In this document: piece after piece, positions 11,814 through 60,391 of the stretch
Position numbering within the stretch: position 1 is the first letter of the stretch
How the letters are laid out: every line of letters starts with the position of its first letter
Assembly (NCBI GenBank): GCA_002118135.1
Contig: BDIU01000008.1
Coordinates: 1-64,000, forward strand
Direction of reading: 5' to 3'
DNA from: Trebouxia sp. TZW2008
Taxonomy: Eukaryota; Chlorophyta; Trebouxiophyceae; Trebouxiales; Trebouxiaceae
Length of the DNA stretch: 64,000 nt
Translations under genes and position numbers: made by a program
Notes under the pieces: model-generated
What the model was told of the DNA's origin: nothing
The model's database searches: none
What the model saw: only the letters and a program-made list of their open reading frames with translations

Positions 11814-14800
11814 TTATTGCTGAGTCTCTGCAAGCAATGACTTCAGCAAGGAAGTTACTTCTGCCACATCCACCTGTGTGGGTGGTTGAATTGCAGACTT
11901 CGCAGAATGGGCTTTGCTAACCCAACGCCTGCAACCACCACGGTATACAAATGTAGCACAATCAGTGTGCAACATCTGATGACATTGAAGTGTGATCTCA
12001 GCAACTTTCCATAGCTCGGCAACGCACTTTTGGGAGTCTGCTTCCCGATCACCAATTGAACATCCGATGATTGTCCTTCTCACAATTTTTGCCCTCAACT
12101 TAGCGCTGCACTGAAGCCATGCTCTCAAACATCCTAGTGCACATCAACAAATGCAACTCACAAGCAAGATTGTGCTGCAGCGCTTGCAAGTGTCGGAGAA
12201 GAGCAATGCTCACATCTGCAGCAAGTGCAACGTTCGCAAATGATGATTTGCCTTGTTCAAGTTGGTGCTGTATGAACTAGTCATCACTTTCTGTCAGCAT
12301 GACCTGCACATCAATCTGATCTTTGCATTTGCAACAGCTTCAGCATAAGCTCAATCCAAAATTGATGACGATCTCTGCCAGAGAGCGTGCACAGACAGCA
12401 GTACACGTGACCTGTAACACTGGCAGAGGTTGCACAGCAGTGGCGTCACCTGTAAGAAAGTCCAGCCCACTTAGCTGTGTGTTCATACAAACGCCACATG
12501 CCTGGCTGTGGCCACAGCTCTAGCAGAGCCGTACCAGGGGGCATAATCAGAGTCCAGGCCAGTGCAGCCCCGTGCATCCCTGTGTCACAATTGCACAGGC
12601 TAGACGCAAACCAGAGCTGACATTGACCAGTAGCACTGCAGACATTCTGGTCATAGGAATTCTGTCAGTGCAGATAGCAGCTCACGTCTCTCGCTCAGCT
12701 TGAGGATCTGATGAAGCTTTCTGTTAGCCAGCAACAGGTGGACATTCAGTGTCAGCACAATTCAGCATCATTAACACATGACACAACATGTTCATAGCGA
12801 TGTCTGGCAGCACCCTACGCGAGCAGCAATTTGATGCCTTGCATTATTATATGTAGGCAGCATAATGCTCCCTCACAGTGAGGGGATCGTACCAATCAGC
12901 ACATCTGTGTTAGCCGACATCAGCTTAATCTGCTCAGCAAGGCTGATCTTTGCTAGATCCACCATGTGGGCCTGCACATTAGTCATCTGCTGCAAGGCCG
13001 CAAACAGCTCATCCTCATTGCTGATCTGCCTTGCAACCCTCCTCTTCTTGCCGTAGGGCTTGCGGCTGATCAGGGTAACCCTTATGGGTTGGGTAGGTTG
13101 CCTGGTGGGCCCAGTGGGTAGACTAAGGGTTCCCAAGAACCATTCACGGAAGCCCTGCGTAGGCAGTCTCAGCTGTTGGCCAACATACACACAAACTGGC
13201 GACTAGTGTCAAGACACAAGACAATGTGGCGGGTCTCAAGACACAACACACAGACCAAACAGATCATCAATTACTTGTATTGGCTGGTCCTTGAGAACCA
13301 GCCAAGGAAACCCTCCATAGACAGTATCAGCTGTAAGCAAGATTACAAGCGTTGTGACAAAAGTCAGACTGCTTTCAGGTTTGATTAAAGTTAGATGCAT
13401 CGAAGTCATTCATTGACACATTGGATTGTTTGCTGAGACACAGGATTTCATTTGACTGGAAGCATTTTGGCAGGCTCCCGGCACATTACCAATACAGGCC
13501 ACAGAGATCTTCAATCAGCTGTATTTTGTGTTGCGTTGATTGCAATATCTTGAGCTCAGATGTATTGGTCAAGAACAGATCAGCCTGAGTATATAACTGT
13601 CTACGCAAGCAGGCTAGAACTGTTTGTCAGAGTTACTCACCTCTACAAGATGTGTATCAGTAAAGGATGGGCGCTTCTGACCAAGAGGACAAGTCTCATT
13701 CATTCATTCATTATGAACGTGGGCTAGGCAGGCTCAGCAGGCCCAACCAGGTACATACAGAAGCAATGAACTGTCTCTAACAGGACAAGTCTGGTTGCAG
13801 CTTACGCAGCTTGCAGACCCATGCATCCTGCCTGCCAGTGCTGAGAGTTTGATGGCAATCAAAGGCTCATTGCCGGCCCCTGCAATATATCTCATCGGGT
13901 TTTGATTCCCACCATAGAAAGCGCAAAAAAACCTTACAATCTAACCCATTCCCCCTAACAAAATCAAAATTGTAAAGCTTTCTCATTGCTTTTGGAACCC
14001 TACCGCCCAAAACCCGATGAAGCATGATGTGAGGGCGTTGCCGGCAGGGACGCTGTCGTCAGTGATCAAGCTGTTGACACAATGATTAGCGCATTGTTGT
14101 AGTGTAGGCAGCTTTCACATGCATCCAAAAGCAGTTTTCTGATTGACAGCAATCTGTGCAGATGCCTTGATCTCAAGCCCATTTGGTACAAAAATAGGCC
14201 TGGAGGTCACAAGGCCAAGATCAGTGCAGTGCTGACCTTGAACAAAGCTGTATTGTATGGACAGCTGTTGTCCTCATAGCCATGTGCATACAGGAGGCTT
14301 GTATAGCCAGGAGGCACAAACACTGCTGCCTGCAGCATGGTCCTATTCAGGGTGTGTAACCGCCTGGCTGTGCCGCCACCGCCACCTACAATACGCAAAG
14401 AAATTGAACTGAAAGCAGGGTGTCATCAGCTGCTGATGCAAGGAGCAGGTCTCAGCAGCACGAGCAGCATGTCTTGTTGGACATGTGGACCAGCGTCATA
14501 CCAAAAATGGAGGAGTATAGTGCAAAGTGTCAGTACTGCAACAGCAAAAATGGCATTTGTGAGTGGCATGACAGTCATAACGCATAGTGTCCATTGACAA
14601 TTTGCAAAGCATTGAACCTTCAATGCAAAATTGTCATGAAAGGGTATGCAGCAGTGGTGCTCAGACCAGGCAAGCAGGACGGCTTGCTGAACTTTGTCTG
14701 ACTGCCTTGCAGTAAGTGCTTTCAAATCAGCAAAGCCGCAGCCCGCTGCAAACTGCTCAGTCTTGAACAGATGGGTACTCACTGGAGGCTTAGATGGCTG

Positions 14801-17581
14801 GGGCATACAGCACGCACGTCACACTTCAGATTGCCTTTGCAGTGTGTATTTGGGCAGTTACCAGGTACAAAGGCTAGGGGCAGACCCAGTGAGACTTGGC
14901 AGACGACCATTTACAAGGACCCTACCTCCCTTCACGCTCAATACAACTGGCATAGGATATGACAGGACCAAACTAGTTGGACACAGTTGCTTGCTCCAGT
15001 ACATACCTTGCTGGGCTTGCTGAGCCTGTCTAGCACTTGTCCAGAACGAGTGAATAGAATGAAAGGCACAGCCACAGCCACAGAAGCAACTGTAGCTGCA
15101 CACATGTCTGTCAGAAAGGGCTGCATCCATGGTGACAAGAGAGGGCTTGGCAGTCTGCCATACCTGTCTGTTTGCTGTCCAATTTGCTGGTCAATGCTGA
15201 GGAGCTAGCCCCGGCTGCCACAGCTGCTCACAAGCCATCCAACAAGTGCAGAGGCTAACTAGCATGCATGCCAAAGCAGAGTGCAGCCAGGGCTTAGCAA
15301 GGAACACGCAGGGAGCCGGTCGTACCTGTCTGTGCACCATCCAACTTGCTGGTCAATGCTGAGGAGCCAGCCCCTGCTGCCACAGCTGCCCACAAGCCAT
15401 CCAAGGGTCCAGCAGCATGGCGATCCATTATGATGACCTGTCTGCAAAACTTGTCAGATCCCAGAACCGCTCCAGCCAATGAGCTGTAAGCTGCAAGTAG
15501 TGTGCTGGTATCAAATGGCAGAGCAGTTTGTGAATGCAGTACATGGAGCCTGACTGCATCGTAGCATGGTTGTGAAGTGGCACTACCTATGACGTATTCT
15601 TGACCAGAGGACATGGCATTGCAGATGATCACTCAAGTAGGACAATAAAGAGCTGCTGATCGGACAATTCTTGCCATTGCCAAGGGACACAAACATTTGT
15701 GGTGCAGTTCAAATGACCAAATGATGGCACTGCATTGTACAAACTGAATGCAACTTATGTGTACACAGAGCACAACTTTGCACCTGTGTAGGTTCTCCCA
15801 GCCCAGCATACGCACAGAGATGTAGACGTTCAGCAGATCTGTGAGTGTGTGAAAGACATTGGCATGCTCTGTCACTTCCCTTGTCACAAGCAGACTGGGC
15901 GTTGCCTCTCTGTTGGCGATCTGCACAACAACGGAATAGGTGCTCAAACTGTGTACAAGAATCTAGCAGCAATCTGCACACCAATGCAACTGGTGCTCAA
16001 GCTAAATACAGGGACAGCATGCACTTACAATCACATTGTGAACGGACGCAATGCGGGGCTTGACCAAACTTAACAGCCTTTTCACTTGAGTTGAGTAGGT
16101 ACTCTTTGCGACCAATTGTTGAACAGGGCATTTGACAGTGCCCTGTTATACAAGTTGTGAACAGTTGTACGCCTCATCAGGCAAGTCAAGTGAATCTGCA
16201 ACCACCTGCAGCTGCTCGTTTAAACTCAACACACAGCTGCAGCACTGACTACCATCGGATCACCAACTTCTTATTTTCAGTGATTGATACTGTACACACT
16301 TGCATTTTGCATGTCACACACTGGCGCCAATTGCGTATTGTGCACTTTCCACTGCATCTCAGTGACTCACATTCTCAACTCGCACATGTCATGTATCACA
16401 CATTGCCTATTACACATCTAGTTTTACACATTGCATATTGACTATTGCGTATTCACTGGTTGTTACCTGAGATGCAGTTTCTCGTGTCAGTGTCTTCATG
16501 CTGCCCATGATGTCCTGCAGGTGATCTTGAGGGAACATCTCAAGTCTGACAATAGACGATGTGCATGCCAACCCAAACGCTCCAGGCAGGTAGCGGTTGT
16601 AGGTCGCGCCAAAGTTGCAGAGATAGTTAGGCCGATGCTCAAGACAAGGAGCAGCCATCATATGCCTTGCATCCACCAGGAGGTTGCCGGCATCACACAG
16701 CACATGTGGCCTGCTTGCGTTTGTCATGTGAGCGTCATTGATGGTCCTGCAATACCATCGCATGCTGACTTGATTTAGATGCAAATTTTGGGTTGAGCAC
16801 ATCATCTGCCTTTGCATGCATCAGGAGGTTGCTGGCGTCACACAGCACGTGTGGCCTGCTTGCAATTTTTGTATGAGCATCATTGATGGTCCTGCAATAT
16901 CATTGCATGCTGCTGTCAGTTTGGTATCCATTATCCAGCATCGGCCTTAGCATCCACCAGGAGGTTGCTGGCATCACACAGCACATGTGGCCTGCTTGCG
17001 TTTGTCATGCGAGCAGCGTTGATGATCCTGCGACAACATTGAATGCTAACATTAGCTTTGGTGTCAACTGTGCGTCAGGTTCACTTTGCCATTGTCTGAT
17101 GACCCCTGTTGGGTCCCAAGGACAGTGAACGCAATTTAGTGATTGCTTGAAGCTGAGACTAGGGCCTGTGCAAATTGGCACAAGCAGCACACCTGTTGCT
17201 ATTAGCACAACCAGATGAAGCTGTACCTGCAAGTCAGCTTTGATGACTGTGGTGCAAGCTCTGTTCTGCACATGGCTTTGGCAGAGGAGTTCCAGTTGGC
17301 CAGCCAGGTGTTGCCGAAATGTTCATCACAGTACTGTGCTTGAAGACGGTCGCTGTTCAGACTCCGGCGATACTTTCGAACAGTAAGCCTTGTGGGTGGC
17401 AGTCTTAAAGTAAACAGATACAGAATCAGAGATAGGCAGACTGCCTGCGTTTAGCAACACCTGTAAATGTCTGGCGGGCACTGATCAGGCAGGAGCGTCG
17501 AGACAGCTGTCGTACCGCAATCAGTAGGCGACGCAAGCAGCAGGAGAACCGTCGCGAGCTTTTGGTCGTTCTTGGCGGCAT
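11814..17581 (-). CDS. GT61 (DUF563/EOGT-like) glycosyltransferase
   Basis: Glycosyltransferase of the family that includes plant arabino/xylosyltransferases and EOGT, expected in Golgi or ER; the acceptor is unknown. Phase-consistent exons are 16746-16467, 15920-15784, 15441-15326, 14385-14237, 13154-12893, 12579-12450 and 11928-11814. Upstream, an exon ending at 17227 encodes QYCDEHFGNTWLANWNSSAK, and a first exon probably starts at 17581 (MPPRTTKSS, basic then weakly hydrophobic). The junction between those two is unresolved. Family landmarks in order: PHVLCDAGNLLVDA, ATYNRYLPGAFGL, ANVFHTLTDLLNVY, AAGPLDGLW, AAVFVPPGYTSLLY, RVTLISRKPYGKKRR, AKISLAEQIKLMS with DVLIGMHGAAL, and LELWPQPG. 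The usual MHGAGLT is MHGAALA here. Exon copies lie in two introns and a LINE 3' end sits in the intron after 15326. Confidence 0.88.
13690..13800 (-). mobile_element. LINE-type dispersed repeat, short 3'-end copy
   Basis: Minus-strand copy of the family seen at 14755-15065 and 25480-25597. It shares the block GGCAGGCTCAGCAGGCCCA plus a GTACATAC motif, and has a (CATT)n run at its end. Located in the GT61 intron between 14237 and 13154. Confidence 0.55.
14755..15065 (+). mobile_element. Non-LTR retrotransposon (LINE) 3' end
   Basis: A plus-strand reading from 14771 gives RLRWLGHTARTS, then LPGTKARGRPSETW and a stop. This is the RWLGH...GRP...W signature that ends many LINE ORF2 proteins. About 90 nt of 3' UTR follow, then a degenerate GAAT tail. 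The 5' part of the element is missing. It is inserted antisense into a GT61 intron. Related fragments occur at 13690 and 25480. Confidence 0.7.
15162..15241 (-). repeat. Partial copy of the GT61 DGLWAAV exon
   Basis: This stretch repeats the 3' half and donor of the exon at 15441-15326, about 160 bp downstream of it on the minus strand, with roughly ten substitutions. It lacks the exon's 5' half, so it looks like a duplication relic. Confidence 0.75.
16815..17051 (-). repeat. Two extra copies of the GT61 LCDAGNLLVDA exon segment
   Basis: Copies at 17051-16950 and 16918-16815 lie upstream (in sense) of the functional exon that starts at 16746. The first reads open through IINAARMTNASRPHVLCDAS with its own AG acceptor. 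Both diverge from the functional exon after the NLLVDA codons. They could act as alternative first segments of the exon or be duplication relics. Confidence 0.8.
17085..17155 (+). repeat. Dispersed repeat family with CCCCTGTTGGGT core, copy 1
   Basis: Contains CATTGTCTGATGACCCCTG, TTGGGTCCCAAGGACAGT and a short TGATTG tail. The same core and an (ATTG)n-type tail recur at 31905 and 43070. Probably the 3' end of a non-LTR element or SINE. Confidence 0.6.
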
Positions 17582-19266: not shown

Positions 19267-19311
19267 ATCGACGCAAGCTTGCGCATGCGGCACCTGAAAT
19301 AGCATATCGCT
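19267..19311 (+). repeat. Partial copy of the 17.8-kb small gene
   Basis: About 35 of 45 bases repeat 17827-17871 in the same orientation, including ATCGACGCAAGCTTGCGCAT. It lies 32 bp upstream of the TL29-like start codon, so it may now be part of that gene's leader. Confidence 0.7.
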
Positions 19312-19342: not shown

Positions 19343-22300
19343 ATGATGGCACAATCAGCAGCGCATGCTTCCGTTGTTCCTGGCCATTCACACGCGCTGA
19401 CCAAAAACCAGCGATGCATGCCGTTCACGACTCAAGTCAGACATCCTCGTCGTGCCATGCATCTCACATGCAGAGCACAAAGCGGCGACGCAGATTCTGT
19501 GCAATCTGCCAGTCAGCAATCGAGGCGGGCGCTTCTGCTAGCGGGTATTGAGGCAGCCTTCAAGTCAATCAAGCACCGTCTGCATATCAACCCGTGGCCC
19601 TTGTCACAGCTTTGCATGCGCCTTCTCTGCCGCTGATCTAACGGGTCCATGCTGATTTGTCACAGGCGGCGCAGTCTTGTCGTCTCCTCTATTGGCACGC
19701 GAAGCTTGCGCCGAGATAGAGACCAACAAGAGCGTCATCTCTGTTAGGGGCCTCTCAGCATTCCAGAGGTCTGCGCAGAGAAATTACCTGGCGGTATGCT
19801 GTCATAGATCTGCACTTGCTGCTTTGTGCGGCTTGATCATATTCACCATCCTTGCTCAACATGTACCTGGGTCATGTCAAGCACACTTCCAAGACTGCAG
19901 TTGCCTGCAACTATCAATCTCATTGTGTACATGCAACTATCACTCTCATTGTGTACATGCAAATGAAGAAACTTGTGCTTCCCTGCAGCAAAGGTCAGAG
20001 GCAGAGCTTAAAAAGGTGCTGGGGCCTGAAGATGCCCCGATTGCATTGCGACTGGTCATAAACGATGCTGCCACATATGATATTGCAAGTGGCAAAGGAG
20101 GCGTGAATGGTTCCATCATTCAAAGGCATGTCCTTGTTCCAATTTGGCTTTGCATAGCCTCATCTGCATATCTACAGACTACTCCCAACATGACATTCAG
20201 CTACTGAATGTTCCAGCTTTGCATGGGACTTTCCTAACATGACATTCAGCAACTGAATGTTCCAGCTTTGCATGGGACGCAATGCGTGGCTCAAGATAGC
20301 ATGCAAGCACGTGCGCATCTTTGCAAAGCTGCTGCCTGCAGAAACACTCTCGTCGTTGCAACTTGCTATCAGTATCATCCTATACACATTGATACAGCAT
20401 CAAAACACATCAGGACTGCTTCCTCTCGACAAAGCCCCAGACCCGGGAAGGCAGCCATGCCAGACATTCATCTGTTCAGAACCACTAAATGCCAGTGTAC
20501 CAGTCCCAGTCAGACAGGCGTCAGTCAAAATGTGTGAGGCGCCCATGGTTCCTCCCTGCAACAGATCGAGTCAGCGCTACAGCTTTTGCCTGCAACAGTC
20601 AGCTCTTCAGTCATTGATGCATGTGCCAACATATGATATCCTGCTGTGTCTCGGTTACAATGTATGTCAGGTGTTCTGTAAAACTGATATAAATATATTC
20701 TAATAAGTGTTGTAAACATCTGCTGCAGTGAGGAGCTGGGCAGGCCAGAAAACAAGGACCTTAAAGGCTACGTGGACAAGCTTGCTGGTGTAAAGAAGAC
20801 TATAGATGAGAAGGGCAAGGTTGCAGGTAAGCGCAGCGTTGGTCTGGCCTGCAGCAATTCTGTATACCTGCTGCAGATCAGCTGCTCACATAGAAGTGCG
20901 CATACGAGGCTGCTCACTTACAACTGCTCGCATGGGACTGCTCACACAGAAGTGCTGCTGCATGACTGCGCGATGACAGCTGCTGACACAGTATTGCTTG
21001 CGGCACTGTGTGATTTTCCAGCTGCAATTCACTTCTAGCACGTGCCAAGCAACACAGTGCTCAGAATCACCTCTTGGTCGTGATCAACTTGATCCACCAA
21101 CAGCAGAGTAAGTGTGTTATTGTACTGATGTGTCTCCAATGCTCACGTCGCTTCCTGCTTGCACCCGCAGCCCAAGAAGCAATCAGCTGGGCACACTTGA
21201 AAGTGTTAGCGGCCAAGTAAGCGCATGTACAGATCTCTTGCATTGCTCAAAATAGGGCCATTACTGCACTTGTAGGCATGACTGTAATCGTTGCGATGGA
21301 AGACAATGTTCTTCCAGCAAGTAACAGCATTCTCAGCTGTGTGCTGACCCGTGCTATTGTGCCTGTAGGTCAGGAAGCAATCAGCTGGGCAGACCTGACA
21401 GTGCTAGCGGCCAAGTAAGCGCAGGTGCAGTCTTGATCGGCCTACACTCATGGGAGTACAGTCACTGTTTGCTGAAATGTTCTGTGGCTGCAGATCAAGA
21501 GGCAATCAGCTGGGCAGACCTCATAGTGCTAGCGGCCAAGTAAGCGCATGTGCAGTCTCGATCGGCCTAGACTCATGGGAATACAATCACTGTTTGCTGA
21601 CAAGTTCTGTGGCTGCAGATCAAGGGGCAATCAGCTGGGCAGATCTCACAGTGTTAGCGGCCAATTAAGCGCATGTGCAGTCTTGATTGGCCTACACTCA
21701 TGTCAACACAGTCACTGTTTGCTGACAAGTTCTGTGGCTGCAGACCAAAAGGCAATCAGCTGGGCAGACAACATAGTGCTAGCAGCCAATTTGGCGCATG
21801 TGCAGTCTTGGGCTGCTCAGAAAGTGAAGAGGGCAAGCATGGCCGGTGGCAATGAGAGAGGACCATTCTTCCACCCATAAACATCATCATCTCACGTGTG
21901 CTGACCTATGCTATTGCGGCCACAGGTCAAGAGGCAATCAGCTGGGCAGACCTCATAGTGCTAGCGGCCAAGGTAGCGCATGTGCAGTCTTGGACAGCTC
22001 AAAAGGTGAAGAGGGCGACCATTGCATCAGGGGGCAGTACCATTGCAGAGGCCTTTGGTGCAGCCTTTCCCCTCCCCTTGGGCCGGGTGGACGCCACATC
22101 ACCTGACCCCCCTGCCAAAATACCCATTCAGTCATCATCGCCGTCAGATGTTAAGGTCAGGCCAAAACACAGCATCACCTCTTGTACTATGGAACGTGCT
22201 TGGTGACTGTTGCATCAATGGGCAGTAACATTGCAGAGGCCTTTGGTGCAGCCTTTCCTCTACCCCTAGGGAGGGTCGCCGCCACATCGCCTGCTGCCCC

Positions 22301-46116: not shown

Positions 46117-49100
46117 TCACTCCAGACCGAAACCCTCTGCGTTCATAATGGCAAGCTTCAATCTGTCTGTCAGCTTCTCCTTGCTCTGATATGAAGGAAG
46201 CAGCAGAGTGTTGAAGCAAGTGTGTGACGTGGGCAGCTTGTTGCTGTCTGTGCCGTCTCTCTGAATGATGCAGCGCAAGTTGCCCAAACCGCCAATTGGA
46301 GCCCTGTCACTGCCAGTGAAAAACTTGAGAAACCTCCGCTTCTCCTCTTCATCCATCACCTCTCTGACAACCTCCCACAGCCACTTGACAACCTGCAAAG
46401 CAGCAGTTCATCGAGTCCAATGTGATGCGTCCTTGGCATTGACGCTCACTGTGTTGCCGGTGATACTGGTGGCCAACACATTTGCATGTGCCTCTTGCAT
46501 TGCTTTGCAGCAATTGACGTACAGTTCATGCGTACTTTGCATACTTGTCAGCACAGAGTATGCTTGGGCGGTGCAGCTGAGCATCAGCCAGCACCACATC
46601 CTGCTGCCGCTCTGCTTCTTGATGTTTGCTGACAGAGACTGCAACTGCAGCTGTTGAGTGCAATAGCCGGTGGACACATAACTATGTCATAACACCAAGG
46701 CTCCAATAGGATCAATGCGCCAGAAATGCACCGTCAGGAATGGAAAGCCATGCTGTCCTGGTAAAATGGATGTTCAGATCTTCAGCATGTCGTGAGACAG
46801 GAGCCATTCATCTTTATTGGCAGGAGCCATGAATCAGCAAGAGACAGGGCACTCACCCTGTGCTCAGGGCTGTAGCCGCCGTCATAGCGGGCGTTGGCCT
46901 GCATGGCGTCAAAGTCCAGCAGGGGGTTGCCGCACACCAGCCGCTCCAGCTCGGTGGCGCTGAACAGGTGGATAGCTGGCCCGCCGCACAGCATCATGAA
47001 CCCCCGTGCAAATGCCTCAAACTGCACCAGGCATCGGCATTATGATTTTTGTAGGCCTCAATTGGCATGATTGCTCAATCATTCTTTGGGACAGAGGGCA
47101 GATGCATCAGAGTCTTAACTGTTGTGTGACATACACGTAAGCTGAATACAAGCAGAATGGGTGCAATCTGTTGAAGCAGCAATTCTGCCTTGAGAAGGCT
47201 GATGACTACTTTGCTGCTGCATGCGTCAAGTCATGTGAGTGACTTGCATGTGACTGGGAAGAGTCTCAGCAGGCTTCAGAAGATAGACTGCAAAGTCACA
47301 ACAGCATCAGTCTGTATTAGCTTCCCTGCTGTGTAAAGCTAATACAGACTGATGCACCACACCAGCTGGCAGGCAATCAGCTCAAGTTTGCCAGAAAACC
47401 CTGTCAGCGACAGCATCAACAAAAGCAGTTGATAAAGCTTACGCAATCATGTGATATGCAAGCACGTTTCCAACGCTAGTTCTGATGGGCCTTATGAATT
47501 GTTGAAGCACATGTCATCATATGCCAAAGCTGCCAAACATCACAGCAGTCCACGAGATGTGCGAGGGTGGCTCACCTGCTTGTGAATGGCTGTGTTGAGG
47601 TAGTAGTCCACATACAGGTCCACAAACTCTCGCCTGTTGTCCTCAGTGACCATGACGTCCTCGCCATCATCCTTGAGGGGCACTGTGAGAGTCTCACCAA
47701 TGCCTGGCACCCCCGCTGTGAAGTTCTGGCAGAACACATCCTCCACTGACGCCTCACCTGCAATGCATACAAGGCAGATGAAGGATACAGTAATCTCTCT
47801 TGATAAGGACACTTGATATACGGACATCCTCCATGTAAGGACAATGCAGCTGGGAACCAAGCACTGCATCTTGACTACAGTGTCACTTCGGAGTAAGGAC
47901 AACTTGATGTACAGACATTTTTCTTGGTGACCAATGCAGTCGTTATGAACAGAGGTTACTGTACTGTCTTTGCCAAACTCGATGAAAAGAGGCTGCACAT
48001 CGCATTGTGACACATGCCATCTCTACCTCTGCTGCTGCATCATGCTCTGTGGAAAAAGACTGCATCAAAGCTGCTGCAAGTCAGCCACATGCAAGAACAC
48101 ATCATGCAGAAAATGGGTTGTCTGCGTCCATGGAAAGCGCAGCACAAGACGCTGATATGGTAGGCCTTTAACGCCCATGCTGCCTGGATCTGCATGATTA
48201 TGAGTGCAAACCAAGGTGGGTGACATGCCTTCATACTGCAGCAGTGCATTGAGGGATTTGCCAAGAGTGGGCTCCATGTCTTGCAGGTCCCGCAGCGTGC
48301 AGGACTGCCCAATGAGCTTGCGGTAGAGGGCCAAGGGCAATGGGAAGTCCAGCAGCACAGCATTATAGATGGCCAGCCCCAGCACTAGACCCACGAGCAT
48401 GAATTCATCCTCTTCTTCCAGGCTGCTGGGGTTGAACCAATACGTTCGTGTCTCCTGCACATGATGATGTGAGGTTACAGCAGATGATATGCAACACACA
48501 TGAAGATGAACAGAACGTGAGGCAAATATACTGGCTGAGAGACGCGCCTGCCAGGGCTGGAACACAGCAGCGCAAACACCAAGATGGGTCACAGAATCTC
48601 ACTACAGAGCATGTACATGATTATTATGGACTTATCAGGCCAATGTTCCGTCTGGAAGATGAGCCTAATGAGCAGCTGCTGATCCGGGCACGACACATGC
48701 TGTTCTGTTGAGACTGGGGCATACTGTTGCAGCAGATTTGGCATCGCCCTCTGCATACTGTTTAGGCTCATGGTCTGAAGGACATGCACACAACAAGGAC
48801 AACAAGATGAGAAAGAACCGTTCGTGAGGCCTACATACCGGCTGGAAGATGAGCATGCTGTAGCCGGGGCACAGCAAGCCAGGTCACAGCACATTACTAG
48901 AAAAAACTTAAGTCTAGGCAGAGCAACTCAGGGTGAACTTGACGCATTGCATCTGTTATGGTAGATTGTGAGCCCAAGTGGAAGATGAGCCGTGCCATAG
49001 TCTGGCCTTACTGATCAAGCTGGGTCACAGAAATTTGCTAGAAGGCATGCTACTGATGACTATGCCATGAGGCCAATTGCACCGACCCAAAGATGCGCAG

Positions 49101-52100
49101 TCTATGATCTTGGGGACCACAGCACGACATTTCAAATGCTGGTCAAGCTCATTAGTCGAAGGGGAAACAAACAAGAAAGGGAACGTCATGGGAGTGTGGC
49201 CCACGTACCGGCTGGAAGATGAGCATGCCATAATCTGGACACAGCAGCTCAGTGACCAGCAGCTGGAAAAACTCCTTCTTGACGCCGCCTGCATCAATGC
49301 CGTCCTCCCCGATGAAATGTACCCGCAATGGCTTGAATACATCCCGGGGTTTCTGCCTTGCTATTTCATCAAGCGCATCCTGCATTGCAACAGGCAGCAA
49401 ACTCTTGGTCACAGGTACAGGTCAGACTTCTCCTGGGCTGCTACAACAGCAGAGCATACAGATCTGCTGCTGGAACATGACACACGGTACAGCTTGGCAA
49501 TGTGTGATGTGCATTGCAGCCTGGCAATAATCGGCAATGGCAAGCCACTTGCTGCAGGCAATGTGCAGCAAATGAGGCAAGCATTGGGAGCACAAGATGC
49601 TCATCTGGATCAGGGTAGTGTCTCTTGTGCACGAGTGTAAGCATAAGTGATAACAGCTAAACTTTGCCAACAGTGTCTCCGCCCATGTTGTGATAAAAGA
49701 CTTGGCACAAGCAATTCAGTTGCAGTATGATAGATCACTGGGCGCACCTCAACTAGGTGATTTCTCCTGATTCTGAGAATGCACATGTCCGGATGTGTGT
49801 CAGGCACTCCGCTCTCTTGGGGTTTGGGCAAATTCATTGAGCTAGCCCTCTGCAGGCCCAGCTCATCTGCCAGGAAGCTGCCTGAACCTGAGCCGCTGCT
49901 GCTGGTGTGACGAAGACCAACGGCAGCTGCATGGGGGGGCGGCAGCATCTGGTGAAGGGGTACCCCTCCTGACCCCCCAGAGGGCCCTGGGGTGGCCGTG
50001 CTGCCCCCAAAGGCTGCTGCCCCTGCCGCAGGGGCTGCTGCTGGCTGGCCTGCCCCGCTGGCGCTGGTTGTGGCTGTGTTGTGGCTGTGCAGTCGGCTGG
50101 CTGACATCTCCCTGGCCACCATCTGGCGCTCATCTGCCGCCTGTCCAAAACAGGGGAAGTCAGTCAGCCAAAAAAAATAAATACCGCAAACGATGTTCGA
50201 TCAGAAGTCAAGTGCATGCTGACATCTCCCTGGCAACCATCTGCCGCTCATCTACTGCCTGAAAGAAGAGGGAAAGCTGATCAGCAGCAAGATAGACACA
50301 GACAGGAAGCAACAGAGTTCAAGTGCATGCTGACATCTCCCTGGCCACCATCTGCTGCTCATCTGCCGCCTGTCAAGCAGGTGGAGCATGTCAAAACTTC
50401 TCAGCAAGTCAGAAATTAGCAAAGTTTGCGCCCATGGCATGCTTTGCTTTCATGTTACCACTTCACGCTAGACAGCAAGCCTTTCTTGTATTTGATGGTC
50501 TCAGTTGCATTGCAATCTGTTCAGGCAGAAGGTCATGCGAACATGATTTGACATTGCTCTAGCATCATTCAGGCACCATCAAAGAACACAAGCCAGATGA
50601 TGACAGCCTTGCAGACAGGTCAAAAGTGTCATACGCCAACCACAATCAAGTTTCATAAACAAGCTCCTTGAGCTGAAGCAGAACAACTACAAGTGAGAGA
50701 CAGCTGATGGTGATGACGATGGTGACAAAGATGATGCTGCGTTCTGCTGTTGTCTGGGCACCCCACAATTCACGCCTGAACTGGTATTGGTGAACCAACT
50801 ATGCTCAACATGCAGGTGATCAAGGCTGACCTGATAGCCAGGAGTGCCTTCTGCAGAGGGCTCGCCATCTGCATTGTTGCGGAACATGTTCTGCCACAGG
50901 TTGCGCAGGGCGCCTGTGCCTGAGCGCGGCCCCTGCCGCCGGCTATCTGACCTACGAGCCCCCACAGCAGCACTGCGCACATCCTCCTGCATGCATTGAA
51001 CGACAACCTGCGGACTACATACACATACACTTCCATACATTGCTCTGTTGACAGATACTGTTTGTGCTTCATATGTCCTGCAGGGAGCCTGTGCCTGAGC
51101 GCGGCCCTTGCCGCCAGCTGTCTGACCTGCGAGCCCCCACTGCAGCACTGCGCACATCCTCTTGTACAACAACCATCAAAATCAGGGGCTTGTTACACAT
51201 TTCTGTATGTTTTGTATGTTACATGACCGGCAGAATCAGTGCGGGCTGCCACTGCAGCACTGCGTACATCCTCCTGCACCCCATGTGAATAATCTAGGGG
51301 TTGAGCTACATACATCATTCCATGTTGCACTGTTACCTTATGCAAAATATGAGTGCTATGGTCTATATTGAACAGAGCACTGAGGCAGCCCCTGCCGCCA
51401 GTGGTCTGACCTGCGGGGCCCCACAGCAGCACTGTGCATATGGTCCCTCAGCCCATATGGATAGGTTAATAAGCAGTCTACACACATATACAGATCGTGT
51501 GAAGCTCAAGTGCTTACTTGTCAGGCAGCTGTAACAGTGTGATATTCAAATTACATGCTGGCTGCTTCTGCTTAGAAAAGCTTTTAAAGTCATGCCTAAC
51601 AACCCCTTTTTGATTCTCACTTTGCCTTGTGCCTGTTGTGACGCCTGACGGCAACACTTTTTTCCCCTAATTTTCTTGTGGGCTGACAATGTACCCGCTA
51701 CTGCACACAAGGTCACCTGCAACTGAGCAAGAGGCACGAGACAGCAACGTTGCTGTCAAGCAACAGCTTTTTACACAGTGTTGAGGTCTGCATGTAAGAG
51801 TTACCTGCAACTGAGCATCCTTCTCTTTGATGGAGGCCTTGTGGTCAGGCAGCACCCGCTCCTCAGTGCCTGCTCGCCCACTGCCATTGGCCTGCTCCAT
51901 ACGCGCTTGCTGCACCGTCTGCATGCACACCACACAGCTATCAGCCTCAGGCGCTTTCACTGGCAAGCAATGGTGCGCTGTGCACCTGAACCTTGCGCAA
52001 CATATAGACAGAACAGAAGCAAAGCTTCATGGAACTGCAGCGAGACACATGGGCTTGATTGGGCTGCTCTTGATATTGATCAAGCCAAACCCTGATGTTT

Positions 52101-55100
52101 GATGACAGCAATGCCTAAGCAGTCTGAACTGCTTAGGAGCTGCACCATTGGGAGTACCAGGCATGGAATTCATGCAGCTCAATTGTGTAGTTGCCACAAA
52201 TTCCTATACACAGTCTTTCCCTGACCAATTCTGGCTGCTGCCGCACATGGATGGCCAACAGCTGGTGATGAGCAATGAGCAGGGTTGATTGCAGCTGTGG
52301 GGCATATGTGCCCACCTGAGTCATGAGGAAGCGAGCCTCAGTATGCAGCAGCTTGCTCTTGGCGCGCGGGTTGAGCAGGAAGGGGTAACTGCAGAAGGAG
52401 AAAGGTCCGTCCAGGCCAAACTGGTGCTGAGGCTGGTCATGGGTTTGCCGCCAGGCTACGTAGTGATCCTCAACATCCAACTTCTCACTGCAACAAAGTT
52501 GAGCACAGTTTGAGCTCTGTGCAGCACAGCTGAGACTTCACAACAGATAGAGAAAGGCCAAGCTGATGCTGAAGCTGGTTGTGGGTTTGTTGCCAGCTGA
52601 CAGAGAGATCTTCCACATCAAGCCTTTTACTGCACGCAAAGTTGACAACATCGTTACCTCTGTGCAGCACATGTTGGACAGCCAAGCCAATGTTGACTGC
52701 GCACAGAGCTGAGCGCTTTGTCATCTCTGTGCAGCGCATAGGCGACTTCACAGCTAATACCAACAAGCCAAGGCTTTGAGCACTGGGCACATTATCGACC
52801 CAACGAACATTGCAGAAATAGGCACCATTCAAACTGTAGTGAGGGATCAGAGCTTTGTATGAAGTTGACGTGTGGCCCTGATGTCAGCATTATGAGTGTA
52901 CAGCCCTCCCCTCACAGATCGGCGCAAAGGATCACCTGATGAGCTCATTGTAGAAGGCTTCAGGGGGCAGTTGGCGGCCCAGCTGGTTGGCCTCCTCGAC
53001 CTTGGCCAGCACTTTGATCACGTTCATCACGCTCACTGTCAGCTTCTTTGTCACAAACAGCTCGTCTGTGAGGTACTGCTGAAGCGGCAGCACCACACGC
53101 TCCTGCAGCAGGGGCCCTGGGTACTCTGCCCACCATTTCACCAAGCACTGCATCAGCAGCAATGAAGTCAGCAGTCAATCAGCGAAGCATGAGTATTACT
53201 GTGAGCAGGGTCTCTGATACAGCAGTAGCAGCAGCAACAGCAGCAACAGGTCAAAAGCCCAGCCAGCAAAGCACAAGCGTCGGCGTGAATCGCAGTGTCA
53301 ATAATATTGCTGCCCAGCACTTCACCAGGCGCTGCAGGAGCAGTGACAAACTCAGCACTCAGCTAGCAAGTACAGTAAAGCATGAGCACATGCATGAATC
53401 CAGGCACTGCAGCAGCAGCAACAGGCGTGGCAGTCTGCCAGCAAAGGATGAAAATCGGCATGGAAAGGAGCCTGAGCAGGATCTCAGTCCATGACTTTAC
53501 CTGGTGATGTTGACAATGCAAACTCACATGCACATTGCAGAACAGCCAGGAAGCAATCAAGGCCTGGTAAAATTCCCAAACAACTGAGTTCTGATCACTG
53601 TGGGCTCTCTAGGGGGGTGCACTAGACTTGTCTGCATGTAATCAAAGCCTGTATCAGATAACATGGCCGTGAGGTTGCAGAATTGCTGCACATGCACAAG
53701 AGGTGAATGGACTCACATGTCTGCTGGATGAGGGTGCTGTCAGGATGGAGTTACACAAGCGGGGGATGAGCACATTGGCCAGCTTCTTCTCAGCTAGCAG
53801 GGGACTCTGAGCAGCCGCCAGCAACACCTGAGCCCTGCGACACCATCACAGCAGTCGTGAGCTGACTGTAAACGCTGCAAAGCATCAAGGACATGGTACA
53901 AGCACAGAGGCCAGAGTTCTGTGACACCATGCAAGCAGTTGCATTTGGGCGCAAAAGCTGCACAGAGCACGAGACAAGCAGACAAATTGAGTGCTCAACA
54001 GGGCACAGGTTTGCAAGGGGCAGTCTGAGTGCTGGGTAAAATCAGTGGACAGTGCTTTCAATCTCACCTTTCAGGTGTACCTTACAGGTGTACCTTTCAG
54101 GTGTACCCGGGAGGCTTATATTGCGGTGCAACTTGTCCAGCAGCTGGCCGGCAGCTTTGAAAAGGACTGACTGGATGCTGTGCAAGGTCAATAAGAAGTT
54201 CTTTCAGTGCTTTCACTTTTACCTTTGAGAGGTGACCAACAGGCGCACATTGCGGTGCAAGTCATCCAACAACTAGCCAGCAGCTTTGTACAGGGCTAAA
54301 TGGATGCTGTGCAAGGTCACTGAAAGTGCTTTCAGGGCTTTTACCTTTCAGGGGTGCCCAAGAGGCGCACATTGCGGTGCAAGTCATCCAACAGCTGGCC
54401 TGCTGCTTTGTACAAGGCTGACTGGATGCTTGCGCTGCACAGGCCGTTGATGGAGTCCTGGATGGCGTCCAGGTTGGCAGCTGTCTGATCGGCTGCCGGC
54501 TGACTGGGAGAGGCGGGGGTTTTGTACAAGCCCAGAATTGACTTTTGCATCTCATCTAGCAGTTCTACGTCTATGCCTATTCTATCCTGCAGGCAAAGTG
54601 AAAGTCTGCGGGTACAATCTTGCCAGCTGCATGACTTTTGCTGGCTGCTTAAGGAAAAGTTCCCACAGTTGGGCACCACCAGGACCCAGGACCCATACAC
54701 ACTGTCATGGAACAAGTTCTGATTGTGAATATTGCTCATTGCTATAGCTTACTCTTGCTTGTGACAGCAAAGCAGACCCTGTTCTTTTGACTTCAATGAT
54801 GAAGACAGCTCATTGCAGCACCTTGCATATCAGCTGTAAACACACATTTTGACAAGACAGCTCACTTTGCTTGCCCAAGTACTCACATCATGCACAACTG
54901 GGGTTGCATGGTGTCATGGCGCCTGACACTGTCCGCATCAGGCAAATGCGTTTCCTGGCAGTGCCCGTAGCATGCAAATGCATGCACCTATTTGGTGGGA
55001 AGAGCGCACCTTGAAGCCAAAAGTGGCGCTGAGGGCAGCAGCAGAGCCAAACACCATTTCCACAGCTGTCACAATGGGCTTGAGGTGCTTGGCACTGGGG

Positions 55101-58100
55101 CCACGGTCCCTGTCCCCAGCTGCAGTGCTGCTGCTACTGCTGGTTGCACTGCCTGAGCTGGCCTGCTCTGCTGCAGATTGGATGGCCTCACGCAATCTGC
55201 ATGCAATCAAGATTGAGCCCAGCAGATTGAGGCTGTAATGAGAACTCAATCAGAATCTTGAAGTACTTGCAGATTAGCAGCCTTGCTGTGCAAAGAAGAC
55301 AACTGGAAAAGCATGGGAACAGCATGCCAGTATGAATCTGAGGATGACTTGAAAAGGGAGGTCTATGCCTGTAGGTGTCACAGGCAAGAGCTTTTGTTGC
55401 CAGAGGCAGGCCAAGACTGCGACTCTTTGTAATCTTGGTTGTCTCTTGTCAGTGTGCATGGCAAGCACGACCTTATGCAGCATTGGGATGCATGCATCAC
55501 AGCAAAACTTGAAAGGCTTGGCCAGAGCTGTATTCACCTGTCTGCAAGGCTGTTGTGGCGGTGGTCTGGCAGCTCATCAGGCGCTCTCGTCAGCAGAGCA
55601 GTGCAGTAGCTGCCAGCCACCATGGAGGAGACCACAGCAGACTTGTTGCCCCGCTGCTGCTGCAGGAACTGCAGGTTGAGCTTGGTGGGCACTGTGACTT
55701 CATTGCGGGTGGGGTGTGAGGACTCCCCGTCCTGGTCAAGGGAGTGGGGCAGGGCTGGTTCAGTGCCAGCAGCCCCTGCTGTGAACTTGAGGTAGGGCAG
55801 CTGACCAAACTCTGTGGAGCCACAACCATACACTGTCCCGTCCCTGCATACAGCAGAGCAATGTACAGCAGTGAGGCTCTGGACCTGAGCTGATTGAGAG
55901 AGTGGGGCAGGGACATTGCAGTGCCTGCAGCCCCTGTTTTGGACTCAAAGTATGGCAGCTGGCCCAACTTTGTGGAGCCACACTGTCCCATCCCTGTGAA
56001 CAGAGGAGCAGCAACGCCTCTGGGCATGTTCAAGCATGTGATCAGGGCTAGGACCTAGTCTTACTGTGCAATCAATGCCATTGCCAACACAAGACCGCTG
56101 AGCCACAGCCACTTCCTGTCCAGGAAGGCAACAAGGATTCGCTTAGCTGCCAGCAAACATGCAAGTTGCATGGAGAACAGATAACAGCAAGCACAGTGGC
56201 AGATCCTGAACAGAATGGCTTGGGCGCATAAAGCAGTGCTCATGTGCGCTCAGTTTGAGCTGAGCACTTTCCTAGCTAAGCACTTTCCTAGCAAACATGT
56301 ACACAAGCAGATTGCACGATGATACAAACTCACTGGCAGAGGAACAGGGTGTGTTGTGCCCCACAGGCGACTGTCTGTACACCCGCTCCTTCTAGCTCTT
56401 TGATCTCAGTTGGCGCTGCCTTGTCCTTGAAGGTGCGTGTGCCCAGCTGACCGCAGTTGTTGGCGCCCCAAGCACACACCTGGTTGTCTGTCACAGCAAC
56501 TGTGTGATGGCCCCCAGCTGCCACACATTGCACATGCTGCACAGGCAACGCAGCATGTTCAGCTGCCTGAGACTGTCAGCATGCAACATGCCAACACACA
56601 GCTGATTGTCTGTCACAGCGACTGTGTGATGGCCCTCAGCTGCCACACATCGCAGATGCTGCACAGAAACTGCGTTAGGTTTTGCTATCTGTGATAGCCA
56701 GCATGGCAAATGGACTGATGACCTATGGCAAAATAAAAGTCCAAGCACACATGTGACTGTCTGTCTGGAGGGACTTTGAGGTCCCTCCATCACACAGTGG
56801 GGCACTGTGTGATGCCCTCCAGCTGCCACACATTGCACATGCTGCACTGCAAACAGGCCCTCGTCACTTGTCTGAGACTGTCAGCATACAAGGCACACGA
56901 GTGGTCTATGTCAACGCAAAGGTTATTTTGGGTGGCTGATCTATGTTGGCAGCGTATCTGGAAAGCGCTTGGTCACATTAAAAGATTGCTGTACCTGCAA
57001 GGGTACTCGGCGTGGCAATAGAACCCTAGTGTCTTCAGAGTTCTGCTGGGTGGCCTCCACGGGCGTATTGGGCTCACTAGCCAGGTGCTTCTCCAGAACG
57101 TGGTCAGGCACACTGAACAGCCACTCAGTGGCCACCTCAACCCCAACATTGCCAGTCTCTGAAAGGGCCAGCTCTGCCTTCTCATTGGGGATGCCCATGT
57201 CCATCATGGCAGTCAAGAAGCGCTGGTTCACCTTGCGCCGCGCCTTCCTCTTCTCTGAGGCTGACCTCTGCAACAGCAGTGGTTGAGAATGATTGAGCTC
57301 CTGTCAAGCTTACCCAGGCTCAATGCCAAATTGCACGCTGAGCAATCTGGCGTCCAATCCCAGCTTAGTCGAGTTTTCAGGCACACAAGAGCTAGCAAGC
57401 AAGCTAGGAACCTGAATCTGTCGTGCTACGCAATCATAGGCATGTTCACTGGCATATTGGACAATGAAGATATCAAGTGAAGCTCTGTTGCCACTCGTGA
57501 CAGCCTGGAGAGGCTGTCAAAGAAGCATAAGCCAGCTTGTTTGCACTCAGCTATGTGGTGAAGCTCACAGCACACGGTCTGCATGACGCACATGACCCCA
57601 GCAATGAGCAACGACTCCTGCAGCCTAATGTTGTGCCTGCTTTGCTTCTCTTCAGCTGCAGTCATTATGCGGCCATCGCGCCACTGCAACAGGTGTGCAT
57701 CAAACACAGGATTTGCATAGCAATGGCAAGCAGTTATAGACAGAGGAGGGCTCACAGAGGCTTGGGCTGCCACATCAGCAGCAGCAGGCAGGCCCAGCTG
57801 GCCCTTCTCATTGCTGCCCCACATGAACAGGAAGCCGTTGCTTGTCAGGGCTGCGCTGTGTGCGTCACCTGCAGCAGAAAGCACACTGACATGACATAAG
57901 CTGTTGAGCAATTCAGGAACGCCTTCAATTCAGCAGTTGCAGATAGATGCAATGAGCTGCAGGCAGCATGTTTTGCTCCAGCAAAAGCAGCAGCATAATA
58001 TAGAATGGTGTACGCAGCATGATGCAATATGCTACAGGCTGTCATGCTGCCACATTGGCTATATATGGCGAGTGCTAGATGGAGCTATACTGCTACTGAA

Positions 58101-60391
58101 GCCAGACATGACAAGTGTCACAGGATCAAGGACAGGACAAGAGCAGAAAGATCAGGCTGTGCAAAGCATAGCAATCTTACAGCAGAGCATGTGTGTAGCA
58201 GACAGCAGCCATGGCAGGACATATGCAAGACAATCTGTGCAGCAGGAATGGCCGTTAAGGACTTACCAGCTGCAAGCTGCTGCACTGGCATCGCCCAAAG
58301 AGCATCCACAACAGCGGGTGACTTGCGGACAAGGGCGTCATTCAACCCAAGCTGTCCTGATGTGTTCAGACCCCAAGCGAAAACCTGCACATGCAGTTGT
58401 GGTGCAGTAAGCACAATGTTTTCCTTTTGCGATAGTTTCTGGCATGCATGCAATTTCGCTGAAGGATATGGTTCAAAACACAGTGTGTCTGCTCAGCGCA
58501 TGCAAACGGTATTGGGTGGAGTAGCATCATTATCTGACAACATTGTTCTGCCAGTGTGATCGTGAGCGGTTGTCAATGCGCTGTACTGCAGAGGATGCTA
58601 GGGCGCTGTGCAAAAAGTTGTCAACACACAGGTAATGACAGGTTGCAATTGCGTACTTTGCTTTCAAACAAGCTTTGCACTCTACAAGGTTTATGATGAT
58701 CTTGTGCATGCAGCAGTCATAGATACTGCAATCACAGCTTCTACAGTCACAGCCAGCCCTTCAGGCATTGATGACAGTGATAATGAAGAACATGCATATA
58801 GAGAGTAACTTAAGCGATGTTGCAAGCAATACCTGTGAGGTGGCTGTGACACACAAGGTGTGGTACTTGCCGCACACCACTTGGGAGACATACATCCCTT
58901 GCAGTGGCTTGATGCTGCGGGGCTTCACCCATAGGGTCTCAGCACGCTCCCCTTGACCACATTGCCCCTCAGAGTTTGCACCCCAGGAAATCACATCCTC
59001 TGGTGTCAATGCAACGGTGTGATGAGCACCACATGCTAGTGCCCTGACATCCCAGCCTTTCAGGATCTCCATCTTTGTGGGGACGTGCTTGTCATGGCCC
59101 ACGTTTTGGCCTACTTGACCGAGGTCGTTTTTGCCCCATGTGAATACTTCTCCTTCGCCGCTGACACCAGCAGCGTGACCCTCTCCAAAGCTGATGGCGG
59201 CCCACTGGCGAACCACCTGCATCAGTCATGTATCCTAGGATAACGTGATAGTCATATGTCACATATTCTAGCACAGGTGCTAAATGCATGTGGCCCATGG
59301 CATTATCATTTGTTGAGGCTAACTCAAATTGGGGTCTTTTAGCAAATAATATGTGACATATTCTAGCACAGGTGCTAAATGCATATGGCCCATGGCATTA
59401 TCATTGTTGAATTCAGATGCTGGCACACTCCGTGTGTTTCAAGAGATGGTTCAGTGCTTTGCCTGCTCATTTCAATGCAGGTGTCGAACGGCAGGCTGTT
59501 TTCTTGAACAGCAAAATGGTGCGCGGTAGAATGACATTGTCCAGAGCAGCTCTGCTTTAGGCTGTGAATTCAAATTCATATGTTGCTGAATTGCTCTGGG
59601 GCATGCATGACAGCTGCTAAACACAGTTCAGATGAAAAGCTGAAAAGCTGCGTGGCTATTGTCAGGGCATATTCATGGTGTACTGAGTGTGTACAATGTA
59701 AACATGGAAGCGGTGTGTGCAGGACGCATCACATCACATCACATCACAGAACTCAAGGCTGACCTGCAATGTTGAGGGTTCGTGAACATCTGCAGTTCCA
59801 CCGACGCCAAGCTGTCCAACACTGTTGCGTCCTGCGTTGATGACAGCAGGTGCATATAGGCATCCAGAAATGCAGTGACTGTGCACATGAAGCTTATGGC
59901 AGAAGCCTTGCATGTTGCAGATGCATCCATATGACGCTCAGGCACCTTGTACACTGTTCTATAAGTGGCAAACACCAACATGCAGCATAAAGTCAACTAC
60001 ATCAGCTGATAGCACGACCACTCACCACACACCCAGCCATTTTCATCTATTGCAGTGCTGAGAAGGGGAGTGGACGGGGAAACTTGGTACTCAGTGTCCT
60101 GCAGGCATGCAAATGCGCTTTTCGCAAACAGCGAGGTCGATGCTGCGTCATTGCAACGGGTCCCCAAGCAACATCATTTCTTCAGAAGCTCGTCGACACA
60201 TCAGACTGCTCAGGGTTGACAAAGCAAAGCCAGCAGAGCCAGCCAACAGCTGTCAGATTACAGAGCGACTGCAGCGAACATTTGCGTGCAGCAACGAGGT
60301 TGCAGACCTTGACGACCTCGAGCGCTTTGATTTTGATCTTGGGAGGCACTCGCACGCCGGCATTGCTGCCTGCGGCGTTCTGCTTCTCCAT
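46117..60391 (-). CDS. RCC1-HECT E3 ubiquitin ligase (HERC-like), very large gene
   Basis: E3 ligase that takes ub from E2 onto a HECT cysteine and then to substrate. Start at 60391 (MEKQNAAGSNAG); exon 60391-60308 joins 60098-60026 in phase. RCC1 blades appear at about 60098-59766 (GRNSVGQLGVGG), 59222-58832 (FTWGKNDLGQVG, ISWGANSEGQCG), 58386-58265 (AWGLNTSGQLG), 57870-57750 (MWGSNEKGQLG), 56548-56335 (AWGANNCGQLG) and 55843-55545. A UBA-like segment (FLTAMMDMGIPNEKAELALS) lies within them at 57250-57000. Helical middle exons follow (HERC4-like FSFCSYPFLLNPRAKSKLL at about 52400). HECT spans about 49410-46117: VHFIGEDGIDAGGVKKEFF, EDEFMLVGLVLGLAIYN, CGNPLLDFDAM, and the catalytic Cys in LPTSHTCFNTLLLPSY (codon 46218-46216); stop at 46117. 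About 22 exons; many borders approximate. Exon copies fill several introns. Confidence 0.9.
47788..47961. mobile_element. 174-bp pogo/mariner-like MITE with TA target duplication
   Basis: Ends are CAGTAATCTCTCTTGATAAG on the left and, inverted, CAGTAACCTCTGTTCATAAC on the right; 19 of the first 23 bases match. TA dinucleotides flank both ends (47786-47787 and 47962-47963). No coding capacity. It lies in an RCC1-HECT intron. Similar pieces occur near 40160-40290 and 25440-25490. Confidence 0.8.
48530..49015 (-). repeat. Copies of the HECT exon end LLCPDYGMLIFQP
   Basis: The functional exon ends near 49208. Copies near 48975, 48838 and 48650, with a remnant near 48540, repeat its last 40-60 bp with the donor (CCGGCTGGAAGATGAGCATG on the plus strand). 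Confidence 0.82.
50215..50375 (-). repeat. Two upstream copies of the exon start AADERQMVAREMSA
   Basis: Plus-strand TGACATCTCCCTGGCCACCA occurs at the functional site (about 50103-50145) and again near 50218 and 50331, at about 115-bp spacing. Each retains an acceptor-like polypyrimidine-AG on the minus strand. Confidence 0.85.
51070..51445 (-). repeat. Three upstream copies of the exon start EDVRSAAVGARRSDS
   Basis: The functional unit is at about 50995-50900. Copies near 51175-51075, 51285-51235 and 51440-51390 repeat the start of the exon. The first is the best preserved and still open for about 30 codons. Confidence 0.82.
51605..51670 (-). repeat. Short hairpin repeat family, copy E (degenerate)
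   Basis: Minus strand reads GTTGCCGTCAGGCGTCACAA, close to the GCCGTTAGGCGTCATAA of copy A, but the GCCTCTG hairpin is degraded. Confidence 0.45.
52555..52700 (-). repeat. Upstream copy of the exon LDVEDHYVAWRQTHDQPQHQ
   Basis: Reads LDVEDLSVSWQQTHNQLQHQ then diverges. It lies about 160 bp upstream in sense of the functional exon (about 52490-52315). A further fragment follows at about 52680. Confidence 0.82.
54100..54310 (-). repeat. Two downstream copies of the exon end LLDDLHRNVRLLGTPER
   Basis: The functional exon ends near 54345. Copies at about 54310-54225 and 54180-54100 repeat its last about 85 bp at about 120-bp spacing. One contains an in-frame stop. Confidence 0.85.
55348..55405 (+). 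repeat. Short hairpin repeat family, copy D (degenerate)
   Basis: GAGGTCTATGCCTGTAGGTG followed by GTTGCCAGAGGCAGGCC. It lies in an RCC1-HECT intron and is related to the copies at 26588 and 23321. Confidence 0.5.
55890..56010 (-). repeat. Upstream copy of the RCC1 exon CGSTEFGQLPYLKF
   Basis: The functional exon begins near 55843. The copy repeats its first about 110 bp (CGSTKLGQLPYFE), about 165 bp upstream in sense. Confidence 0.82.
56590..56870 (-). repeat. Two upstream copies of the RCC1 exon VQCVAAGGHHTVAVTDN
   Basis: The copy at about 56660-56590 reads HLRCVAAEGHHTVAVTDNQL. A more decayed copy lies at about 56860-56800. The functional exon is at 56548-56335. Confidence 0.85.
59253..59412. 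repeat. Direct repeat of about 60 bp in an RCC1-HECT intron
   Basis: Two copies, 59253-59318 and 59347-59412, share ACATATTCTAGCACAGGTGC and GGCCCATGGCATTATCATT. They are non-coding. Confidence 0.85.

What the first reader, a model, noticed from the sequence alone, without database searches (positions are those of the whole stretch)
11814..60391. Introns of six unrelated genes filled with tandem, decaying copies of adjacent exon ends
In the GT61, TL29-like, JmjC, fibrillin, RWP-RK and RCC1-HECT genes, one border of an exon with its flanking intron is repeated two to six times at about 110-240 bp spacing. Usually only the exon half next to the intron is copied, the splice site is kept, and some copies stay open while others are broken. 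The compact conserved genes here (OTC, PBC1, RPS18, AlkB, MYCBP) lack them. So many independent cases within 50 kb imply an ongoing process that duplicates exon-intron borders. Possible effects are intron growth, alternative exons or exon-repetition transcripts. I know tandem exon duplication as a general phenomenon, but not at this density.
Basis: partly seen in the sequence, partly recalled or inferred. Interest (0 to 1): 0.88.

Follow-up and report, generated by a model that had tools for sequence, protein, structure and literature searches.

The report
Introns holding decayed exon-end copies
In this lichen alga short stretches of DNA have been copied side by side at many places in the genome, and where a copied stretch covers the edge of a gene's coding segment the spare copy is left to decay inside the intron; it is probably a mutational by-product, notable for how common it seems here.

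Summary
Homology-based exon models for three of the six genes (RCC1-HECT, TL29-like, fibrillin) put 12 of 14 local repeat arrays across a true exon-intron border. JmjC was not found; GT61 and RWP-RK were located by domain only. The organism is a Trebouxia. Eighteen other stretches of its genome (178 kb) hold 47 arrays, the window 24; a Markov null gives none in 2.4 Mb, and no separate local inverted copies were seen. Offsets are narrow: median 148 bp, 66 of 71 within 60-230 bp. Copies decay nearly neutrally, with stops and frameshifts. A transcript-like contig encodes exactly the spliced TL29 product without any copy. In 9 of 12 border arrays intron flank was copied too. Best reading: small tandem duplications, tolerated in introns and seen as exon ends because one copy stays constrained. 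The border share exceeds uniform placement unless a two- to threefold detection advantage is allowed, and my genome-wide test of border preference proved powerless, so border targeting is unproven rather than excluded. Current activity is not shown.

The parts
46120..60391 (-). RCC1-HECT (HERC-like E3 ligase) gene, 23 model exons (22 if exons 17 and 18 are one)
   Evidence: spliced alignment of P0001; homologs 86-88% in Trebouxia or unnamed contig
19343..24327 (+). TL29-like peroxidase gene, 7 exons
   Evidence: spliced product identical to P0121 over 369 aa
36519..41540 (-). PAP/fibrillin gene, 10 exons
   Evidence: spliced alignment of P0186 and P0187; Pfam PF04755
21159..22004 (+). TL29 exon 5 acceptor border (real border 21926) with five upstream copies in intron 4
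22014..22993 (+). TL29 exon 5 donor side (real border 22155) with five downstream copies of exon sequence in intron 5, about four of them reaching the donor
23103..23868 (+). TL29 exon 6 acceptor border (real border 23728) with two upstream copies
37063..37340 (-). fibrillin exon 9 donor border and one copy in the intron
37905..38192 (-). fibrillin exon 8 donor border (a GC donor) and one copy
40750..40995 (-). purely intronic array in fibrillin intron 3
48824..49246 (-). RCC1-HECT exon 19 donor border and copy, offset 370
50100..50374 (-). RCC1-HECT exon 17 acceptor border and two copies
50905..51441 (-). RCC1-HECT exon 16 acceptor border and two copies (the nearer one has lost its AG)
52413..52671 (-). 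RCC1-HECT exon 14 acceptor border and copy
54091..54430 (-). RCC1-HECT exon 11 donor border and two copies
   Evidence: no other place found in the genome
55739..56010 (-). RCC1-HECT exon 9 acceptor border and copy
56468..56891 (-). RCC1-HECT exon 8 acceptor border and two copies; offset 123 equals homology length 123, i.e. head to tail
59254..59410 (-). purely intronic pair in RCC1-HECT intron 3, 95% identical
15161..15404 (.). array, gene context not modelled; similarity ends sharply at a possible donor
16649..17050 (.). three-copy array, context not modelled
25668..26483 (.). array of about five copies, context not modelled
27090..27719 (.). three-copy array; no other place found in the genome
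28530..29311 (.). array with 154-174 bp units
29872..30128 (.). 71-bp tandem array
30914..31802 (.). two neighbouring arrays
32340..32675 (.). two-copy array
43391..44236 (.). multi-copy array upstream of the RWP-RK domain match
44670..44923 (+). pair just downstream of the RWP-RK domain match (44541-44645), probably donor side; exon border not modelled

Best explanation
The nuclear genome of this Trebouxia carries very many short tandem duplications, with offsets mostly of 60-230 bp, placed without need of any border signal. When the duplicated unit spans an exon-intron border, the exon stays intact because the copy next to the rest of the exon keeps it; the spare exon end plus splice site falls inside the intron, is spliced out and decays. 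Slippage or unequal exchange between copies can then expand an array. One copy is held by purifying selection, so exon-end pairs stay recognisable longer than intron-only pairs and introns look filled with exon ends. Shown: direct-only, size-limited, spread over the genome, found only locally where tested, near-neutral decay, one transcript-like contig that lacks all copies. Inferred: origin by fill-in and end-joining of staggered breaks or by replication slippage; random placement; array expansion by unequal exchange; net intron growth.
For: 71 direct arrays in 242 kb, 0 separate local inverted pairs, 0 in 2.4 Mb of Markov null. E. coli K-12 control 3 in 50 kb. Offsets median 148, 66 of 71 in 60-230 bp. 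Four array segments (two from the TL29 gene) were found only at their own locus, whereas a dispersed 174-bp repeat gave 1302 candidates. Head-to-tail examples (56468-56712; 20183-20278). Intron flank also copied in 13 of 23 copies, 9 of 12 arrays. Differences at codon positions 1, 2, 3 are 0.134, 0.104, 0.240 over 567 codons, about what one free and one constrained lineage should give, with stops and frameshifts. P0121 equals the spliced product without any copy. Six short-period repeats in the same genes are all intronic.
Against: In 3 of 12 border arrays no intron-flank homology was found although the exon part is 77-93% identical, and several pairs elsewhere end sharply with a non-homologous spacer. 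Pooled dN/dS between real exon and copy is 0.26, below the roughly 0.5 expected for a free copy; transition bias was not corrected. My genome-wide coding-likeness test does not help: 34 of 47 arrays against 60% background (one-sided p 0.055), but the same test on the three genes where borders are known gave 11 of 14 against 66%, so it has no power. No eukaryotic genome was available as control. No junction was young enough to read microhomology.
Confidence: 0.68

Rival explanations
1. A border-targeted process, for instance one guided by pre-mRNA or R-loops, copies exon ends up to the splice site.
For: 12 of 14 arrays in three genes lie at borders, more than uniform placement predicts; in RCC1-HECT exons 16 and 9 and fibrillin exon 9 no intron-flank homology was detected.
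Against: 9 of 12 border arrays include intron flank in at least one copy; purely intronic arrays and six intronic short-period repeats occur in the same genes; splice-site consensus makes short flank identity uninformative. The genome-wide test was powerless.
Confidence: 0.14
2. The copies are maintained as alternative or poison exons.
For: Splice dinucleotides kept in 22 of 23 copies (p 0.04 under neutrality with independence); pooled dN/dS 0.26; three TL29 exon 5 copies carry an acceptor and a GTAAGC donor-like site.
Against: Stops in 7 of 23 and frameshifting indels in 7 of 23 copies; the exact-match transcript-like contig contains none; the border copies aligned are exon ends with one splice site.
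Confidence: 0.09
3. Assembly artefact.
For: Draft assembly of 527 contigs; a few N in two sampled stretches.
Against: Copies are about 64-95% identical with substitutions and indels, unlike misassembled duplicates; the functional TL29 exons match a separate contig exactly.
Confidence: 0.03
4. Mobile element or satellite family.
For: Repeated units, some in regular arrays.
Against: Four array segments were found at no other locus (the tool scores only the best candidates); no separate local inverted copies.
Confidence: 0.03

Closest known systems
Tandem genomic duplication crossing an intron-exon boundary, potato RdRp gene (Ma, Lan and Niu 2016, PMC4974935; abstract and Results/Discussion section read)
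   Same: A tandem duplication spans the 3' part of an intron and the start of the next exon, and copies the splice signals; the same gene also has an 83-bp duplication within an intron.
   Different: There the duplicate created a new intron, with copied exon sequence kept in the mRNA. Here the copies lie in the existing intron, often in several units, and there are many of them.
Small tandem duplications from fill-in and end-joining of staggered breaks (PMC8355091, passages read; the rice study of Vaughn and Bennetzen 2014 seen there as a citation only)
   Same: Direct, adjacent, short duplications; the paper says a break-repair model was proposed for natural insertions in humans and plants.
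   Different: Induced overhangs there were as small as 43 bp; here offsets centre on 148 bp and junctions are too old to read.
Tandem-duplication model of intron origin with AGGT (PMC3443670, passages read; Drosophila cases in PMC2891723, passages read)
   Same: Tandem duplication supplies splice sites.
   Different: No new intron position was shown here; the copies lie inside existing introns.

Membership tests
Small tandem duplication | direct orientation, local only | tested here: met
   71 direct arrays, 0 separate local inverted pairs (three self-complementary hairpin stretches are outside that count); four array segments found only at their locus
Small tandem duplication | copies adjacent head to tail | tested here: inconclusive
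   exact in some (56468-56712, 20183-20278), spacers of roughly 30-120 bp in others, partly explained by faster intron decay
Small tandem duplication | junction signature (microhomology or filler) | not tested
   pairs too diverged; 2 of 71 arrays at 95% identity or more
Intron gain by tandem duplication | new intron position absent from relatives | not tested
   relatives' gene structures were not available; nothing seen here points to a new intron position
Duplicated alternative exon | complete open exon included in mRNA | tested here: not met
   for the copies analysed: exon ends only, many with stops or frameshifts; the one exact-match transcript-like contig lacks them
Transposable element | same unit at unrelated loci | tested here: not met
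   four array segments; positive control

The most novel reading that the evidence does not exclude
This lineage has an unusually active short-range duplication process, confined to offsets of about 60-230 bp and perhaps biased to transcribed exon borders, that makes up much of its intron sequence and litters genes with near-perfect decoy splice sites, so that correct splicing must depend on position (first donor, last acceptor) or exon definition rather than on splice-site sequence.
Probability: 0.3. Interest if true: 0.7.

Novelty: new member of a known kind. Interest (0 to 1): 0.48.

Why it matters
If the sampled density holds, roughly 18,000 arrays would be detectable in 68.5 Mb (about 11,000-25,000, extrapolated). 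The alga would then be a natural system for how introns grow by local duplication, for the size limits of small tandem duplications, and for how the spliceosome ignores decoy splice sites that are close copies of the real ones.

Tried and rejected
Breakpoints exactly at splice sites: suggested by ungapped alignments, not upheld for most arrays after anchored gapped alignment. Copy-spacer-copy insertion with long target-site duplications: suggested, not pursued. Selection on the copies: the codon-position pattern fits a free copy, though dN/dS is lowish. Dispersed repeat: rejected for four array segments. Genome-wide coding-likeness of arrays: at four thresholds 39, 34, 16 and 6 of 47 arrays against backgrounds of 0.84, 0.60, 0.29 and 0.09; I first took this as evidence against border targeting, but the positive control (11, 11, 6 and 3 of 14 against 0.92, 0.66, 0.40 and 0.19) shows that the test cannot see borders, so it is dropped. 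For that reason, and because the stricter rows keep the border excess significant, I lowered the best explanation from 0.75 to 0.68 and raised border targeting from 0.08 to 0.14; alternative exons went from 0.08 to 0.09. tRNA and Rfam scans of the window found nothing. No paper describing this in Trebouxia or other green algae appeared in the listings of my ten searches; only listings were seen except for the four papers named. The sample count was 48 arrays and 47 after the clustering was redone; 47 is used.

Full report
What the window is. The RCC1-HECT query matches an unnamed protein from a 4,333-nt contig at 88% and Trebouxia sp. C0010 at 86%, each over 73% of the query. The TL29-like and fibrillin genes also have Trebouxia homologs, whose locus tags (ABBQ32_009129, _009130, _009138) suggest a conserved neighbourhood. 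The genome held for the window has 68.5 Mb in 527 contigs. I infer the nuclear genome of a Trebouxia, a lichen green alga; the species was not determined.

How general. Eighteen stretches of the same genome from 17 contigs, one of them the window's own contig (178 kb), hold 47 arrays, 2.6 per 10 kb, against 3.75 in the window (p 0.10). Three of 18 have none and one has eight; counts are mildly overdispersed (p 0.02). Order-1 Markov sequences give 0 arrays in 2.4 Mb, and no separate local inverted pair was seen in 242 kb. E. coli K-12 gives 3 in 50 kb. The smallest offset per array has median 148 bp, and 66 of 71 lie within 60-230 bp. Four array segments searched against the whole genome were found only at their own place (the tool scores only its best candidates), whereas a dispersed 174-bp repeat gave 1302 candidates.

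What the copies are. Over 23 copies and 567 codons, differences from the real exon at codon positions 1, 2 and 3 are 0.134, 0.104 and 0.240. A free copy opposite a constrained exon should show position 3 at about twice position 2, as seen. The pooled dN/dS of 0.26 is lower than the 0.5 expected for a wholly free copy; transition bias was not corrected, so mild constraint is not excluded. Seven of 23 copies have a stop in the real frame and seven an indel that is not a multiple of three. Splice dinucleotides are kept in 22 of 23 (read, one ambiguous), slightly more than expected (p 0.04), but copies within arrays are not independent. P0121, whose longest contig has 1,409 nt while the gene spans 4,985 bp, is identical to the spliced window product over all 369 residues. 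I infer that it is a transcript of the same or a very close strain; it lacks the copies on both sides of exon 5 and those before exon 6.

Border targeting or not. Ungapped displays suggested that similarity stops at the splice site. Gapped alignment anchored there finds intron-flank homology above the 95% level of unrelated introns in 13 of 23 copies, at least one in 9 of 12 arrays; RCC1-HECT exons 16 and 9 and fibrillin exon 9 are the exceptions. A stricter null with the same choice among three shifts leaves this unchanged. Uniform placement predicts 39% of tolerated duplications at borders, or 56% and 66% if pairs with one constrained copy stay detectable two or three times as long; 12 of 14 then has tail probability 0.0005, 0.02 and 0.10. 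If at least 30 nt of exon must be copied the last two become 0.003 and 0.02, at 40 nt 0.001 and 0.01. Counting the six short-period intronic repeats as well gives 12 of 20, which fits the uniform or detection-corrected shares better (p 0.05 and 0.45 at 39% and 56%), but those repeats are of another size class. A genome-wide test by codon usage (score AUC 0.91) gave 34 of 47 arrays with a coding-like copy against 60% of matched random segments (two-sided rank test p 0.35, one-sided count p 0.055). The same test on the three genes with known borders gave 11 of 14 against 66%, so it has no power and decides nothing. I keep random placement as the simpler reading, with an unexplained excess at borders in the three genes.

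Intron growth and age. Recognisable copies make up 21% of intron sequence in the three genes (3,652 of 17,634 nt), and introns with arrays are longer (medians 603 and 368 nt, p 0.0003); larger introns are larger targets, so growth is not proven. By best pair identity 2 of 71 arrays are at 95% or more, 10 at 90-95%, 42 at 80-90% and 17 below 80%. This shows no current burst; collapse of very young copies in assembly cannot be excluded.

Mechanism. Direct orientation, locality, restricted size and head-to-tail examples fit small tandem duplications. Fill-in and end-joining of staggered breaks makes such duplications in mammalian cells, and a break-repair model has been proposed for natural insertions in humans and plants (PMC8355091, passages read). 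Replication slippage or unequal exchange would serve as well, and multi-unit arrays probably expanded that way; I could not separate these. The closest published case seen is a potato gene in which a tandem duplication crosses an intron-exon boundary (PMC4974935, abstract and Results/Discussion read); it made a new intron, whereas here the copies lie in the existing one.

Limits. No other eukaryotic genome was available as a control, so unusual density is not tested against algae or plants.

Noticed in passing
25421-25594, related to 14887-15061 and 13696-13781: A dispersed repeat of about 174 bp with 1302 candidate places in the genome, both orientations; 40 were scored, and the 39 besides the query itself are 88-93% identical. 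No tRNA or Rfam match in the window. Possibly a SINE- or MITE-like element.
   Followed up: partly
introns after RCC1-HECT exon 20, TL29 exon 3, fibrillin exons 4 and 8: Four of 36 model introns use GC instead of GT at the donor, a high share if the models are right.
   Followed up: no
acceptors of the three modelled genes: 28 of 36 model acceptors end in TGCAG, and 8 of 15 copied ones by my reading.
   Followed up: no
L008 6604-8361 and L020: Very long arrays: L008 has a self-match of about 1.6 kb at offset 180, and 72% of L020 lies within array spans.
   Followed up: no
21159-21555: Three TL29 exon 5 copies have an acceptor and a GTAAGC donor-like site about 50 nt apart, which would make small pseudo-exons.
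   Followed up: no
33409-33566: Hexamer repeat (CAATGT and GCCAAT units).
   Followed up: no
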